DNA of 64,000 bases from a virus. The notes beneath the pieces were generated by a model, which searched no databases, was not told the DNA's origin, and saw only the letters and a list, made by a program, of their open reading frames with translations. Position 1 is the first letter of the stretch. Each line of letters starts with the position of its first letter. Where the stretch lies: positions 124,001-188,000 of IMG/VR virus record IMGVR_UViG_3300020473_000013; one strand, given 5' to 3'. Positions 3,822 to 8,032 of the stretch are shown one piece after another. The translations under genes and the position numbers were made by a program.

Positions 3822-4532
3822 ATGGCTAAGAAGGCACCTTCCGCCGAGAAGAAGGCAAAGTCTACCAAGAAGGCTGCGAAGACAGGCGGCAAGGTCAAGA
3901 AGTCCAAGCTGCCGAAGAAGCTCACGGTCAAAGCGCTCGCAGACGCCAGCGCTGAGTACAACCCGCGTGTCATCAGCGCCCGTCAGCTCAAGGGTCTCCA
4001 GACCTCATACGAGACGTTCGGTGACCTGAGTGGTATCGTGCTCAACCGTGCTACCGACACCATCGTGTCTGGTCACCAGCGCCTCAAGACACTGAAAGGC
4101 AAGAAGACTCGTGTGGTGACCGAGGACCACAAGGATAAGTACGGCACTGTCGAAGTCGGACATATCGAGGTCCTCGAGGATGGTACGCTCACCAAGATTC
4201 CTTTCCGCGTCGTAAACTGGTCCGACGACAAGGCGGAGAAGGCAGCCAACATCGCGGCGAACGCCCACGGCGGGGACTTCGACAACAACAAGCTGGGTAA
4301 GCTGTTGGAGGAGCTGGAACCTACTGAGGCCTTTGAGATCGAGCAGCTCGGTTTGGACCCGTTAACCATTCGCTCGCTCGGTGGTGGAGCCTCCGCTGCT
4401 GAGGAACCCAAGACAAGTAAGAAGGACAAGCCTGTCGAGGGCGAGCAGGATGATGACGATTCGTTCGGCGAGTACGACGAGAACTCCTTCGAGTTTGAAC
4501 ACCAGTGCCCTCGCTGCTCCTTCAAGTGGTGA
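3822..4532 (+). CDS. ParB-like nuclease-fold protein next to DNA methyltransferase
   Basis: 236 residues. The first 37 are a Lys/Ala-rich tail. Residues about 40-170 carry the ParB N-terminal-like fold, seen in NPR (47-49) and IVSGHQR (81-87), the conserved core of phage ParB-domain proteins. After an acidic linker (about 200-225) the protein ends in CPRC (229-232), half of a zinc ribbon. In phages such proteins are commonly coded beside or fused to DNA methyltransferases, as here, where the methyltransferase starts six bases after this stop. A role in guiding or assisting DNA modification is inferred; partition is unlikely without a ParA. Confidence 0.75.
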   Translation: MAKKAPSAEKKAKSTKKAAKTGGKVKKSKLPKKLTVKALADASAEYNPRVISARQLKGLQTSYETFGDLSGIVLNRATDTIVSGHQRLKTLKGKKTRVVTEDHKDKYGTVEVGHIEVLEDGTLTKIPFRVVNWSDDKAEKAANIAANAHGGDFDNNKLGKLLEELEPTEAFEIEQLGLDPLTIRSLGGGASAAEEPKTSKKDKPVEGEQDDDDSFGEYDENSFEFEHQCPRCSFKW

Positions 4533-4537
4533 TCTGA

Positions 4538-5734
4538 ATGGCAAAGAAGAAGACGAAGACCAACGAGAAGTTTGTACCGAAGGACCCTACATCCAAGGTC
4601 GCCAAGATCGACGGCAGGGAAGTCGAGTACAACGGCGTGACGCTGGCTGATGATACCGGCGTCTCCCGCAATCATCTGGCTATCGCCGAGCCGTTGGAAG
4701 GCGGCAAGAGCCTCGTGCCTACGATGGCCAAGATCAATAAGAAGCGCAAGGACTTCACGTCCGTCAGCTTCTTTGCGGGTTGCGGTGGTGCATCCGTCGG
4801 CATGAAGATGGCAGGCTTCAACGTACTGCTATCTAACGAGTTCATTCCCGCGGCTCAGGACACTTATCAGCTCAATCATCCTGGCACCATCCTGAACAAG
4901 TCCGACATTCGTGAACTCGACCCTAAGGCCTTGCTCAAGGAGCTTGGCCTTAAGAAAGGCGAGCTGGATCACATGGACATGAGCCCTCCTTGCAAAGGCT
5001 TCTCCGCTGCAGGTGTTCAGGAAGACGGCTGGAACAAGGAGGTCCTTTACTCCGACGGTGTGAAACAGCGCGTGGATGACCTATTCGATCAAGGCATCCG
5101 GATGCTCAAGGGTATGAAGCCCAAGACGTTTACCGCCGAGAACGTGTCTGGTCTGGTGCGCGGCGTGTCCCGAGGTCTGTTCGCTGAGACCATAGAGGAC
5201 TTCAAGAAGGCCGGCTATCGCGTCAAGGCTGCGATGATCGAGCCCGTGAAGCTCGGCGTCCCGCAGACACGCGCCCGCCTCATCATCATTGGTGTGCGCA
5301 ATGACCTGAAGATGGACCCTGTATTTCCGAAGCCGTTGAAAGGACGGCCCGTTACCGTGCAGGACGTTCTCCCTCACATCGCATACCTCAAGACGAGCCT
5401 CAAGTCTCGCCTGACCTACGTTCCTGCTGACCGCCCTAGCCCCACGATCGTGGCATCCGATTTTGATACAGGGGAGAACGCGCGGTTCAGTTGCGGAGGC
5501 TGGGTAGAAGACGATCAAGGCCGCCGTCGTAAATACACGTTGCCCGAACTCCGCCGCGTCATGTGTTTTCCTGACGACTTCAAGTTGTCTGGGACTCCGC
5601 GCCAGCAATGGGAGCGTCTGGGCCGTTCACATGTCCCTCTCCAGGTTTACCACCTCAGCAAGGCAATCCGGGAGAACGTTCTGGAGCCCTACTATGACAG
5701 CAAGGGAGCGGATTACACCGACACGATTAAGTGA
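4538..5734 (+). CDS. DNA cytosine-C5 methyltransferase with altered motif X
   Basis: 398 residues with the ordered motifs of C5 methyltransferases: I FAGCGGAS (79-86), IV SPPCKGFS with catalytic Cys152, VI ENV (201-203), VIII QTRAR (243-247) and a motif IX-like PELRRVMCFPDDF (336-348). An extra 70-residue charged N-terminus precedes motif I. The usual motif X GN(A/S)VP reads GRSHVP (362-367): the Asn that packs near the cofactor is gone and Arg363 and His365 appear. Motif IV has PPCK rather than PPCQ. It follows the ParB-like gene and precedes a CmoA-like carboxy-SAM synthase and a PP-loop ligase. Family assignment is firm. Use of carboxy-SAM in place of SAM is inference, and the target sequence is unknown. 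Confidence 0.93.
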   Translation: MAKKKTKTNEKFVPKDPTSKVAKIDGREVEYNGVTLADDTGVSRNHLAIAEPLEGGKSLVPTMAKINKKRKDFTSVSFFAGCGGASVGMKMAGFNVLLSNEFIPAAQDTYQLNHPGTILNKSDIRELDPKALLKELGLKKGELDHMDMSPPCKGFSAAGVQEDGWNKEVLYSDGVKQRVDDLFDQGIRMLKGMKPKTFTAENVSGLVRGVSRGLFAETIEDFKKAGYRVKAAMIEPVKLGVPQTRARLIIIGVRNDLKMDPVFPKPLKGRPVTVQDVLPHIAYLKTSLKSRLTYVPADRPSPTIVASDFDTGENARFSCGGWVEDDQGRRRKYTLPELRRVMCFPDDFKLSGTPRQQWERLGRSHVPLQVYHLSKAIRENVLEPYYDSKGADYTDTIK

Positions 5735-5738
5735 CCGC

Positions 5739-6011
5739 ATGACCGACCAAGACCTACACCAACTGAGGGAGCACATCCGTTCCCTTGAAAACCGCCTCCT
5801 CATAATGGGCTTGGCTCGCGAGGAGGCAGTTCAGGAATACCGGGTCCGTGTATCCTCCGAGTTGTCCATTGATCCGGACAGCCCTGGCTTAGCCTGCATG
5901 GAGCGAAGCATGTTCGTCTCCCGAGGCCAGCAGTTGGGGCTGTCCGACTCCGTATTGGAGAGCATGGCTGATGCACTGTTCCCTGCCACCGTCAGACCTG
6001 ACTGTAAATAA
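5739..6011 (+). CDS. Hypothetical small protein, 90 residues
   Basis: Starts at an ATG four bases after the methyltransferase stop, so it is probably translated by coupling; the ribosome site is weak (AAGTGA). The N-terminal half is helical (about residues 3-40) and the C-terminal half is a short mixed domain. No family is recognised. Its final codons, GAC TGT AAA TAA, contain the TGTAAATA motif that probably serves the CmoA-like gene downstream. Operon position suggests an accessory role in DNA modification, but nothing in the sequence proves it. Confidence 0.65.
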   Translation: MTDQDLHQLREHIRSLENRLLIMGLAREEAVQEYRVRVSSELSIDPDSPGLACMERSMFVSRGQQLGLSDSVLESMADALFPATVRPDCK

Positions 6012-6017
6012 AGGGCA
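6003..6017 (+). promoter_or_regulatory. TGTAAATA-N4-GCA, putative phage promoter
   Basis: TGTAAATA overlaps the stop of the 90-residue gene and is followed after AAGG by GCAAAC. It lies 26 bases before the CmoA-like start, a fitting distance for a -10-like element with a short leader. Confidence 0.65.
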
Positions 6018-6036
6018 AACAACCGGAGGATTGACC

Positions 6037-6756
6037 ATGTACGAAGAAGATCGCGTTACCCCGAAGGATAACTGGGAGTTCGACGAGGACGTTGCCAAGT
6101 GCTTCGACAATATGCTGGAGCGCAGTATTCCCATGTATCAGGAAATGCGCAAGCTGTGTCATAAGCTCGGACGCAATTTCGTCCAGCCTCACAATTCCAT
6201 CATCGACCTCGGCGCTAGCCGCGGTGAAGCGCTCCGCCCTTTCATCGAGGACGACACTGCCAACAAATTCATGGCCGTGGAAATCTCCGAGCCTATGCGC
6301 ACTGTCATGCAGGACTTGTACCGGCATAATCCCAAGGTACGTATCTCCGATATGGACCTGCGCAAGCTCGACCAGAACGTGGGCACCCTCAGCTCTCATT
6401 CCATCTCTCTGGCTATGTCCATCCTGACTATCCAGTTCACTCCTATCGAGTATCGCCAGCAGATCATGCAGGCTATCTACGACATGTTGGAGCCCGGTGG
6501 AGCTTTCCTGTTTGTCGAGAAGGTGATCGGCAACACGGCGTCTCTGGACCGCATGTTTGTTCAGGAATACTACGACATGAAGAACCAGAACGGTTACAGC
6601 TACGAGGACATCCAACGCAAGCGCAGTTCCCTCGAAGGTGTTCTGGTTCCCGTGACAGCTAGCTGGAACGAGGACATGTTGAAGAACGCTGGTTTCCGTC
6701 AGGTGGACTGTTTCTACCGCAATCTCAATTTCGCTGGCTGGCTCGCAATCAAGTAA
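6037..6756 (+). CDS. cmoA: CmoA-like carboxy-S-adenosylmethionine synthase
   Basis: 239 residues, started at the ATG after CCGGAGG. It aligns by eye with E. coli CmoA almost end to end: WEFDEDVAKCF (13-23), the SAM-binding loop IIDLGASRGEA (55-65), LTIQF (130-134), LEPGGAFLFVEK (151-162) and NGYS...KRSSLE (185-200). CmoA makes carboxy-SAM from SAM and prephenate. The Arg I remember as binding the added carboxylate (E. coli Arg199) corresponds to Arg196 here and is kept. In bacteria the product serves CmoB in wobble-uridine modification, but no CmoB is seen here. The neighbours are a DNA methyltransferase with altered motif X and an ATP-dependent ligase, so carboxy-SAM may be used on DNA. Plain methyl transfer cannot be excluded. 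Confidence 0.85.
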   Translation: MYEEDRVTPKDNWEFDEDVAKCFDNMLERSIPMYQEMRKLCHKLGRNFVQPHNSIIDLGASRGEALRPFIEDDTANKFMAVEISEPMRTVMQDLYRHNPKVRISDMDLRKLDQNVGTLSSHSISLAMSILTIQFTPIEYRQQIMQAIYDMLEPGGAFLFVEKVIGNTASLDRMFVQEYYDMKNQNGYSYEDIQRKRSSLEGVLVPVTASWNEDMLKNAGFRQVDCFYRNLNFAGWLAIK

Positions 6757-6764
6757 GGTGCATC

Positions 6765-7583
6765 ATGACTCTCCAAGTACGGGAACACATCACCAACACC
6801 GTAGCCAAGACGGGTGACCGATCCTGCTCGGTGCTGATGTCCTCTGGGATCGACAGCCACAGCGTCCTGTTCTCGTGCTTGGACGCTGGTCTGAAACCTG
6901 TAATCACCTCATTCACCTTGGATGACCGCGAGTCTCGCGACTTCCGAGCAGCGCGCCACGCTGCGGCCTACTTCGATCTGGAGTTCAGGCCCGTAGTTCT
7001 CAGCACGGACCTCACCAAGTTGAAGAAGCGCGTTCTCCAGATGGCGCGCCTTGGAGTTAAGGGTAAGACCGCCTTCGAGTGTCTCTGGCCTATGTTTACC
7101 GCGTTCTCTGCAATCAAGGAGGACGTGGTGTTTAGCGGTTACGGCGCCGACGCCTATTTCGCCTTGAGCAAGCGCGGCACCATGCACTATAAGGACGACG
7201 TGAGCAAGTACGCTCTGGAGGCTTTCGAGAAGTACAAGGAGCCCGACTCCCAGCTCAACGTCCTCAAGGCGTTCGCTGCCAAACGCGGTATCACCTACGC
7301 TCCTCCGTGGTTGAACAAGCACATCACCCGCCAGGTTCGGGAGCGTGTCTTCACCTGGGACGAGTTGAATCGGCCCAAGCAAAAGAATCCCGTCCGTGAG
7401 CAGTACGCCGAGTACCTCGCGGGCTGCATGGTGTACAATCATGTAAACTACCAGCTAGGCGACAGCGGAATCTCCGAGTTATTCACCAAACTACTGGACG
7501 ATCCTGTCTGGAACGCTGCGGGCTACAAATCAACCACGGGCATTTTTAACTCCGTGGTTCGAGGGGAGATCACTCAGGTATGA
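6765..7583 (+). CDS. Asparagine-synthetase-like PP-loop ATPase, no glutaminase domain
   Basis: 272 residues. The PP-loop SSGIDS (26-31) replaces the usual SGGxDS, and VVFSGYGADAYF (121-132) matches the GEGADELF signature of the asparagine synthetase C-terminal domain. These enzymes activate a carboxylate as acyl-AMP and pass it to an amine. The N-terminal glutaminase domain of AsnB is absent, so the amine would be free ammonia or another amino compound. It starts eight bases after the CmoA-like stop behind AAGGTG. A carboxymethyl base in DNA would be a logical substrate. Family is confident; substrate is inferred from context only. Confidence 0.8.
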   Translation: MTLQVREHITNTVAKTGDRSCSVLMSSGIDSHSVLFSCLDAGLKPVITSFTLDDRESRDFRAARHAAAYFDLEFRPVVLSTDLTKLKKRVLQMARLGVKGKTAFECLWPMFTAFSAIKEDVVFSGYGADAYFALSKRGTMHYKDDVSKYALEAFEKYKEPDSQLNVLKAFAAKRGITYAPPWLNKHITRQVRERVFTWDELNRPKQKNPVREQYAEYLAGCMVYNHVNYQLGDSGISELFTKLLDDPVWNAAGYKSTTGIFNSVVRGEITQV

Positions 7584-8032
7584 ATCCGTTTACCCATCTA
7601 CGCGCTCAGGTGAAAGCCAATCTGGAGCGCGAAGCGAAGCTGTCTCCTGCAGAGAGACGGCAGCATCAATGGCAGTTCTTCACGACCGTAGGCGAAGTCA
7701 CCTACATCGTAGGCAAAGGCGGTGCCAACACCATGTTCTATATGGTTGGCCAGAACGGTGAACGACACATGTGCAGCCCCAAGGACATGCTGGACATTAT
7801 CAGCTCCTGGGGCCAGTCACGGTTCGCTGTGTACGCTGTCTGTAAGAAGCCCAGCAAGTTCAGCCACGGTCCTTTCCAATCCGAGGAAGAGGCACTCGCC
7901 GTAAAGGATGCGCCGAAAGGAAGCTACATCGTTGGCATCACACCCGAGAACAAGGTGATCAGACTCCACAAGCTCAAGAGCGGCCTGATGGATGACAAGT
8001 GGGTCCCGTTCAAGCCGAAGAAGAAAGGATAG
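7580..8032 (+). CDS. Hypothetical protein translated with the PP-loop enzyme
   Basis: 150 residues, starting in an ATGA overlap with the PP-loop gene, so translation is coupled. It is moderately basic, with a helical N-terminus (about 1-30), a beta-rich middle (TYIVGKGG at about 41-48) and a Lys-rich end. No family is recognised. The tight coupling makes it a candidate accessory factor of the same pathway, for instance a substrate carrier or DNA-binding partner. Confidence 0.7.
   Translation: MNPFTHLRAQVKANLEREAKLSPAERRQHQWQFFTTVGEVTYIVGKGGANTMFYMVGQNGERHMCSPKDMLDIISSWGQSRFAVYAVCKKPSKFSHGPFQSEEEALAVKDAPKGSYIVGITPENKVIRLHKLKSGLMDDKWVPFKPKKKG

What the first reader, a model, noticed from the sequence alone, without database searches (positions are those of the whole stretch)
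4538..7583. Candidate DNA hypermodification pathway: cytosine C5-transferase + carboxy-SAM synthase + amide-forming PP-loop enzyme
Seen: a cytosine-C5 DNA methyltransferase (398 aa), a CmoA-like carboxy-SAM synthase (239 aa) and an asparagine-synthetase-like PP-loop enzyme without glutaminase domain (272 aa) lie together, with a ParB-like protein upstream and coupled unknown genes. Known: CmoA makes carboxy-SAM from SAM and prephenate; C5 methyltransferases can be altered to use carboxy-SAM, giving 5-carboxymethylcytosine; asparagine-synthetase-type domains activate carboxylates for amidation. Inferred: the phage makes 5-carboxymethylcytosine in its DNA and then amidates it with ammonia or an amine. 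This would shield DNA from restriction. I cannot check whether such a natural system has already been published.
Basis: partly seen in the sequence, partly recalled or inferred. Interest (0 to 1): 0.95.

Follow-up and report, generated by a model that had tools for sequence, protein, structure and literature searches.

The report
Phage carboxymethylcytosine-and-amide DNA modification genes
A jumbo phage carries the three genes of a recently published pathway that puts a carboxymethyl group on cytosine in its DNA and then joins an amine to it, so the idea is correct but already known; what stays open is which amine this branch attaches and what a small conserved companion protein does.

Summary
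In detail: a C5-cytosine transferase (4538-5734), a CmoA-like carboxy-SAM synthase (6037-6756) and an amidase-less asparagine-synthetase-type ligase (6765-7583) form one gene run behind a ParB-like gene, in a 224.8-kb phage record syntenic with jumbo phage PaBG. The window's transferase is nearest to the SpCmoX crystal structure (8yf3) and keeps every named carboxy-SAM pocket residue, including the diagnostic Arg350; its CmoA keeps Arg199; its ligase keeps the invariant PP-loop and models confidently as the synthetase half of beta-lactam/asparagine synthetases. So it is a new member of a known system, with no chemistry yet for this phage. Beyond the paper: the ligase falls in a jumbo-phage clade separate from the proven glycine ligase, so the amine is unknown; a 150-aa protein (7580-8032) lies within 7 kb of CmoA and CmoY in 20 of 20 distinct loci and is missing from two related phages that lack CmoA/CmoX/ParB; those two carry another modification cassette at the same place; and Erwinia-type relatives have an intein at CmoX's catalytic cysteine and racemase/DgcN genes beside CmoY.

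The parts
3822..4532 (+). ParB-like protein (236 aa) with a C-terminal CPRC knuckle, directly upstream of CmoX
   Evidence: phrog_620 1.8e-31; 52% identical to the PaBG ParB-like protein at the same place; absent from the two related records that lack CmoX and CmoA
4538..5734 (+). CmoX: candidate DNA cytosine C5-carboxymethyltransferase (398 aa; possible internal start at 4724)
   Evidence: PF00145 5.5e-45; 8yf3 SpCmoX 1.9e-48; F25, E47, F48, D69, SPPC98 and R350 of SpCmoX all kept, HhaI has GFPC and N
5739..6011 (+). 90-aa ORF between CmoX and CmoA; no relative found, gene status unsure
   Evidence: no family match and no relative in the fetched loci
6037..6756 (+). CmoA: candidate carboxy-SAM synthase (239 aa)
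   Evidence: 4gek 1.9e-27; TIGR00740 1.7e-42, below cut-off; Arg199 of E. coli CmoA kept; 28.6% identical to the proven SpCmoA
6765..7583 (+). CmoY: candidate ATP-dependent amide ligase acting on carboxymethylcytosine DNA (272 aa, no glutaminase domain)
   Evidence: PF00733 1.9e-10; 31.6% identical to SpCmoY; invariant G28, D30, D59, K101, G125, P204, K207; model pLDDT 96.7, best folds beta-lactam synthetase and asparagine synthetase
7580..8032 (+). p150: conserved 150-aa companion protein of the Cmo genes in PaBG/Erwinia-type jumbo phages, function unknown
   Evidence: phrog_23597 2.4e-46; found in 53 phage records; CmoA and CmoY within 7 kb in 20 of 20 distinct loci; absent from the two related records without CmoA/CmoX; ATG overlaps the CmoY stop

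Best explanation
This is a CmoA-CmoX-CmoY DNA hypermodification module of a PaBG-like jumbo phage. CmoA turns SAM and prephenate into carboxy-SAM. CmoX flips out a cytosine, attacks C6 with its SPPC cysteine and transfers the carboxymethyl group to C5, with Arg350 holding the carboxylate, giving 5-carboxymethylcytosine in finished phage DNA. CmoY adenylates that carboxylate with ATP and lets an amine displace AMP, giving an amide. The likeliest amine is glycine or another small alpha-amino acid; free ammonia or another amine is not excluded. The bulky base would shield the DNA from host restriction. p150 and the ParB-like protein are inferred helpers. Shown by others for S-B43: carboxy-SAM synthesis, carboxymethyl transfer, glycine ligation, HhaI resistance of 5cxmC DNA, 5gcxmC in virion DNA. 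Shown here: homology, pocket residues, ligase fold, co-occurrence. Inferred: every activity in this phage, the amine and the sequence motif.
For: Best PDB match of the transferase is the carboxy-SAM-bound SpCmoX structure (structure described in PMC12783734); all pocket residues including R350 kept. CmoA keeps Arg199, the residue that contacts the carboxylate of carboxy-SAM in E. coli CmoA (PMC4482062). No CmoB family (PF08003) in the 224.8-kb record, with E. coli as a positive control. Ligase has the invariant PP-loop residues and the asparagine/beta-lactam synthetase fold. Same gene set in PaBG, L133 and PaBG-like contigs; of 29 distinct CmoX loci with at least 3 kb on both sides, 25 have CmoA and 18 have CmoA and CmoY nearby. 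CmoX, CmoA, ParB and p150 are missing together from two related records.
Against: No nucleoside analysis of this phage or its close relatives was found in the papers searched. The CmoA model score is below NCBI's equivalog cut-off, although SpCmoA, which is active, even has Glu where E. coli has Arg199. Ligase identity to SpCmoY is only 31.6% and it sits in another clade, so glycine cannot be carried over by homology. CmoX's sequence motif cannot be predicted.
Confidence: 0.87

Rival explanations
1. Same pathway, but the ligase uses free ammonia, giving 5-(carbamoylmethyl)cytosine rather than an amino-acid amide.
For: Other CmoY homologs carry a glutaminase domain and were proposed to use glutamine-derived ammonia (PMC12783734); the window's ligase clade differs from the glycine clade at several aligned sites (S256/G259 against R/D, Q163 against G).
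Against: The window's ligase has no glutaminase domain; related short ligases sit beside racemase and DgcN genes, which fits amino-acid-like amines.
Confidence: 0.15
2. Ordinary 5-methylcytosine methyltransferase next to unrelated tRNA or metabolic enzymes; CmoA boosts host tRNA wobble modification and the PP-loop enzyme acts on a tRNA or small molecule.
For: CmoA is a tRNA-pathway enzyme in bacteria, and PHROG labels the phage homologs tRNA methyltransferase.
Against: CmoX keeps the carboxy-SAM arginine that replaces the methyltransferase asparagine; no CmoB in the record; no tRNA genes in the window; the three genes travel together across diverse phages and have a proven joint DNA function in S-B43.
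Confidence: 0.04
3. The pathway stops at 5-carboxymethylcytosine in DNA, and the ligase acts on another carboxylate, as it may in the relatives that have a ligase but no CmoX or CmoA.
For: L134 and L138 keep ligases of this wider clade without CmoA or CmoX in their records.
Against: In S-B43 the ligase acts on 5cxmC DNA and no unligated 5cxmC is left in virion DNA; in the window the ligase lies directly behind CmoA.
Confidence: 0.06

Closest known systems
CmoA-CmoX-CmoY of Synechococcus phage S-B43 (5-glycylcarboxymethylcytosine; PMC12783734, MN018232.1)
   Same: Same three enzyme families clustered; same carboxy-SAM pocket residues in CmoX; same short, glutaminase-free ligase type.
   Different: Gene order (A-Y-X against ParB-X-A-Y-p150); 36% (CmoX), 29% (CmoA), 32% (CmoY) identity; ligase in a separate clade; ParB and p150 found in the window but not in the S-B43 locus.
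Cmo cluster of Pseudomonas jumbo phage PaBG (KF147891), annotated as DNA cytosine methylase, tRNA (cmo5U34)-methyltransferase and asparagine synthase
   Same: Same genes and flanks: ParB, CmoX 51%, CmoA 46%, CmoY 38%, p150 46%, then peptidase and, further on, DnaX, SbcC and DHH genes.
   Different: p150 lies between CmoA and CmoY; an extra 203-aa gene follows CmoY. No chemistry of PaBG DNA was found in its genome paper.
Asparagine synthetase B / beta-lactam synthetase, synthetase domain
   Same: PP-loop, adenylate-forming amide-bond fold.
   Different: No N-terminal glutaminase domain; the carboxylate substrate is proposed to be a DNA base.

Membership tests
CmoX (DNA cytosine C5-carboxymethyltransferase) | C5-MTase with the SPPC catalytic motif | tested here: met
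   SPPC at the aligned site
CmoX (DNA cytosine C5-carboxymethyltransferase) | Arg350, which binds the carboxymethyl carboxylate, in place of the methyltransferase Asn | tested here: met
   Arg in the window and PaBG; Asn in HhaI
CmoX (DNA cytosine C5-carboxymethyltransferase) | Transfers carboxymethyl, not methyl, to cytosine C5 | not testable with these tools
   needs enzyme assay or LC-MS
CmoA (carboxy-SAM synthase) | CmoA sequence family, with the Arg199 carboxylate contact | tested here: met
   4gek 1.9e-27; Arg199 kept; role of Arg-199 from PMC4482062
CmoA (carboxy-SAM synthase) | Score above the NCBIfam TIGR00740 equivalog cut-off | tested here: not met
   145.8 against 193.3 bits; the cut-off was not tested on proven phage CmoA here, so this argues only that it is not the bacterial tRNA-pathway type
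CmoY (5cxmC amide ligase) | Asn_synthase/PP-loop fold with catalytic residues, linked to CmoA and CmoX | tested here: met
CmoY (5cxmC amide ligase) | Glycine as the amine | tested here: inconclusive
   separate clade from SpCmoY with clade-specific residues; the paper's supplementary pocket figure could not be read

The most novel reading that the evidence does not exclude
The jumbo-phage CmoY clade joins an amine other than glycine to 5-carboxymethylcytosine, with p150 as a needed partner, so these phages carry a DNA base that has not been described.
Probability: 0.35. Interest if true: 0.6.

Novelty: new member of a known kind. Interest (0 to 1): 0.38.

Why it matters
It extends a newly found DNA modification to PaBG-type jumbo phages, marks a ligase clade whose amine is open, and names a companion protein (p150) to test. 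PaBG is in culture, so the product could be read by one nucleoside LC-MS run. Modified DNA of this kind bears on restriction evasion, phage engineering, and enzymes that attach chosen amines to DNA.

Tried and rejected
Single-protein scans of viral contigs with CmoA and CmoY found no relatives, and the 10-row ligase alignment was too diverse to search with; narrower alignments worked. The ligase has no PDB relative by sequence, so a fold search was used. p150 gave no informative fold match in the PDB, and in the viral library only its PaBG homolog; a faint likeness to human PURA (E 0.62) was not followed. The idea that Erwinia phages lack CmoX and use an adenine methylase was dropped: their CmoX lies about 17 kb away, split by an intein. 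The large CmoX insertion was first taken for a target-recognition domain; it is an intein. The tRNA reading was tested with a CmoB search and rejected. Supplementary files of the CmoX paper could not be read, so the published glycine-pocket residues were not compared.

Full report
What was checked. Family and structure searches agree: PF00145 5.5e-45 and PDB 8yf3 1.9e-48 for CmoX, 4gek 1.9e-27 and TIGR00740 1.7e-42 (below its cut-off) for CmoA, PF00733 1.9e-10 and phrog_26038 3.5e-66 for CmoY. A ParB-like protein (phrog_620) precedes CmoX. The window is bases 124001-188000 of a 224,853-base virus record.

Already published. Yang et al. (Nat Commun, December 2025, PMC12783734) showed that Synechococcus phage S-B43 makes carboxy-SAM with CmoA, 5-carboxymethylcytosine with CmoX at GC motifs, and its glycine amide with CmoY; virion DNA holds the glycine amide and no free 5cxmC. 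They report thousands of CmoX homologs, often with CmoA, ligases and ParBc proteins, and suspect other amines in other ligase clusters. The main text does not mention PaBG, Erwinia, jumbo phages, inteins or racemases.

Is the window a member? All SpCmoX pocket residues named in the paper (F25, E47, F48, D69, S95-P-P-C98, R350) are present at aligned sites; HhaI has GFPC and N instead. CmoA keeps Arg199, the carboxylate contact of E. coli CmoA. CmoY keeps the residues invariant over 64 phage ligases (G28, D30, D59, K101, G125, P204, K207) and is modelled at mean pLDDT 96.7 with best folds beta-lactam synthetase and asparagine synthetase. No CmoB family was found in the record. By sequence, membership is met; activity is untested.

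The phage and its kin. Gene order and flanks match Pseudomonas phage PaBG: ParB, CmoX, CmoA, p150, CmoY, then peptidase, DnaX, SbcC and a DHH gene. L133 (261-kb record) has the window's exact order ParB-X-A-Y-p150. About 50 Erwinia, Dickeya and Yersinia jumbo-phage records carry CmoA, CmoY and p150 together, with ParB-CmoX about 17 kb away.

What is new here. (1) Ligase clade: in a 70-row tree the window's ligase groups with jumbo-phage ligases (16 rows, SH-aLRT 98), apart from the S-B43 ligase, with clade-specific residues (S256, G259, Q163 against R, D, G). It was a quick tree without bootstraps. Glycine is therefore possible but not given. (2) p150: found in 53 phage records, the same lineage as the closest Cmo clusters; CmoA and CmoY lie within 7 kb in 20 of 20 distinct loci, in several different orders; absent from two related records that lack CmoA, CmoX and ParB. 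This points to a role in the module, though shared descent explains part of it and those records may be incomplete. Its model (pLDDT 90) matches no solved fold usefully.

Mechanism. SAM + prephenate to carboxy-SAM (CmoA); carboxymethyl transfer to C5 of cytosine in DNA through the usual C6 covalent intermediate (CmoX); ATP-driven adenylation and amidation (CmoY). The first two steps are very likely here; amidation is likely; the amine is open: I give about 0.5 to glycine, about 0.15 to ammonia and the rest to other amines. The likely benefit is protection from restriction; S-B43 5cxmC DNA resisted HhaI.

Verdict. Interest is moderate, for the open amine, p150, and the side observations listed.

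Noticed in passing
L138:4906-9467 (record G003) and L134:3180-9439 (record G002): The relative with the most similar neighbouring genes (DnaX 82%, peptidase 75%, SbcC 61%) has no CmoX, CmoA, ParB or p150 but, at the same place, a CmoY-like ligase beside an SPPY amino-methyltransferase-like protein, a thymidylate-synthase-like protein, a PALP-type PLP enzyme related to the 'threonine dehydratase' of Pseudomonas phage MP1412, and a 212-220-aa protein (GNAT in L134). It looks like a swap of DNA modification cassettes and a possibly undescribed ligase-dependent pathway.
   Followed up: partly
L010:1486-3591, L011:1486-3615, L012:1486-3564 (homologs in L013): CmoX of Erwinia, Dickeya and Yersinia jumbo phages is interrupted by an intein (Hint_2, Intein_splicing) placed exactly between SPP and the catalytic Cys, so splicing would be needed to form the active site.
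   Followed up: partly
L015:2229-6944, L007:4893-7432, L008:6825-7397, L003:8849-9499: CmoY of Alexandravirus and related phages sits beside an alanine-racemase domain protein, a DgcN/DUF1611 protein and a glutamate-racemase-like family, suggesting D-amino acids or derivatives as the amine.
   Followed up: partly
L014:4032-4670 and L005:8760-9407: A 2-oxoglutarate/Fe(II) oxygenase lies next to CmoY in Erwinia phage Y3 and Salmonella phage Sen-NF; a further oxidation step is possible.
   Followed up: no
L006:5308-7826: Staphylococcus phage vB-SscS-F1 has CmoA, CmoY and a C5-MTase whose motif is GSPC with no Arg at the aligned 350 site: either a different carboxymethyltransferase or a misaligned one.
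   Followed up: no
L004:7977-8729: Alcaligenes phage Afa-NA1 has the closest CmoA among the phage records (51%) but no CmoX or CmoY within 8 kb; annotated adenine methylases lie on both sides.
   Followed up: no
L148-L159 and similar loci: Ligases of the window's wider clade sit beside more distant CmoA-like (E about 1e-32) and C5-MTase-like (E about 1e-22) proteins; whether these still use carboxy-SAM is unknown.
   Followed up: no
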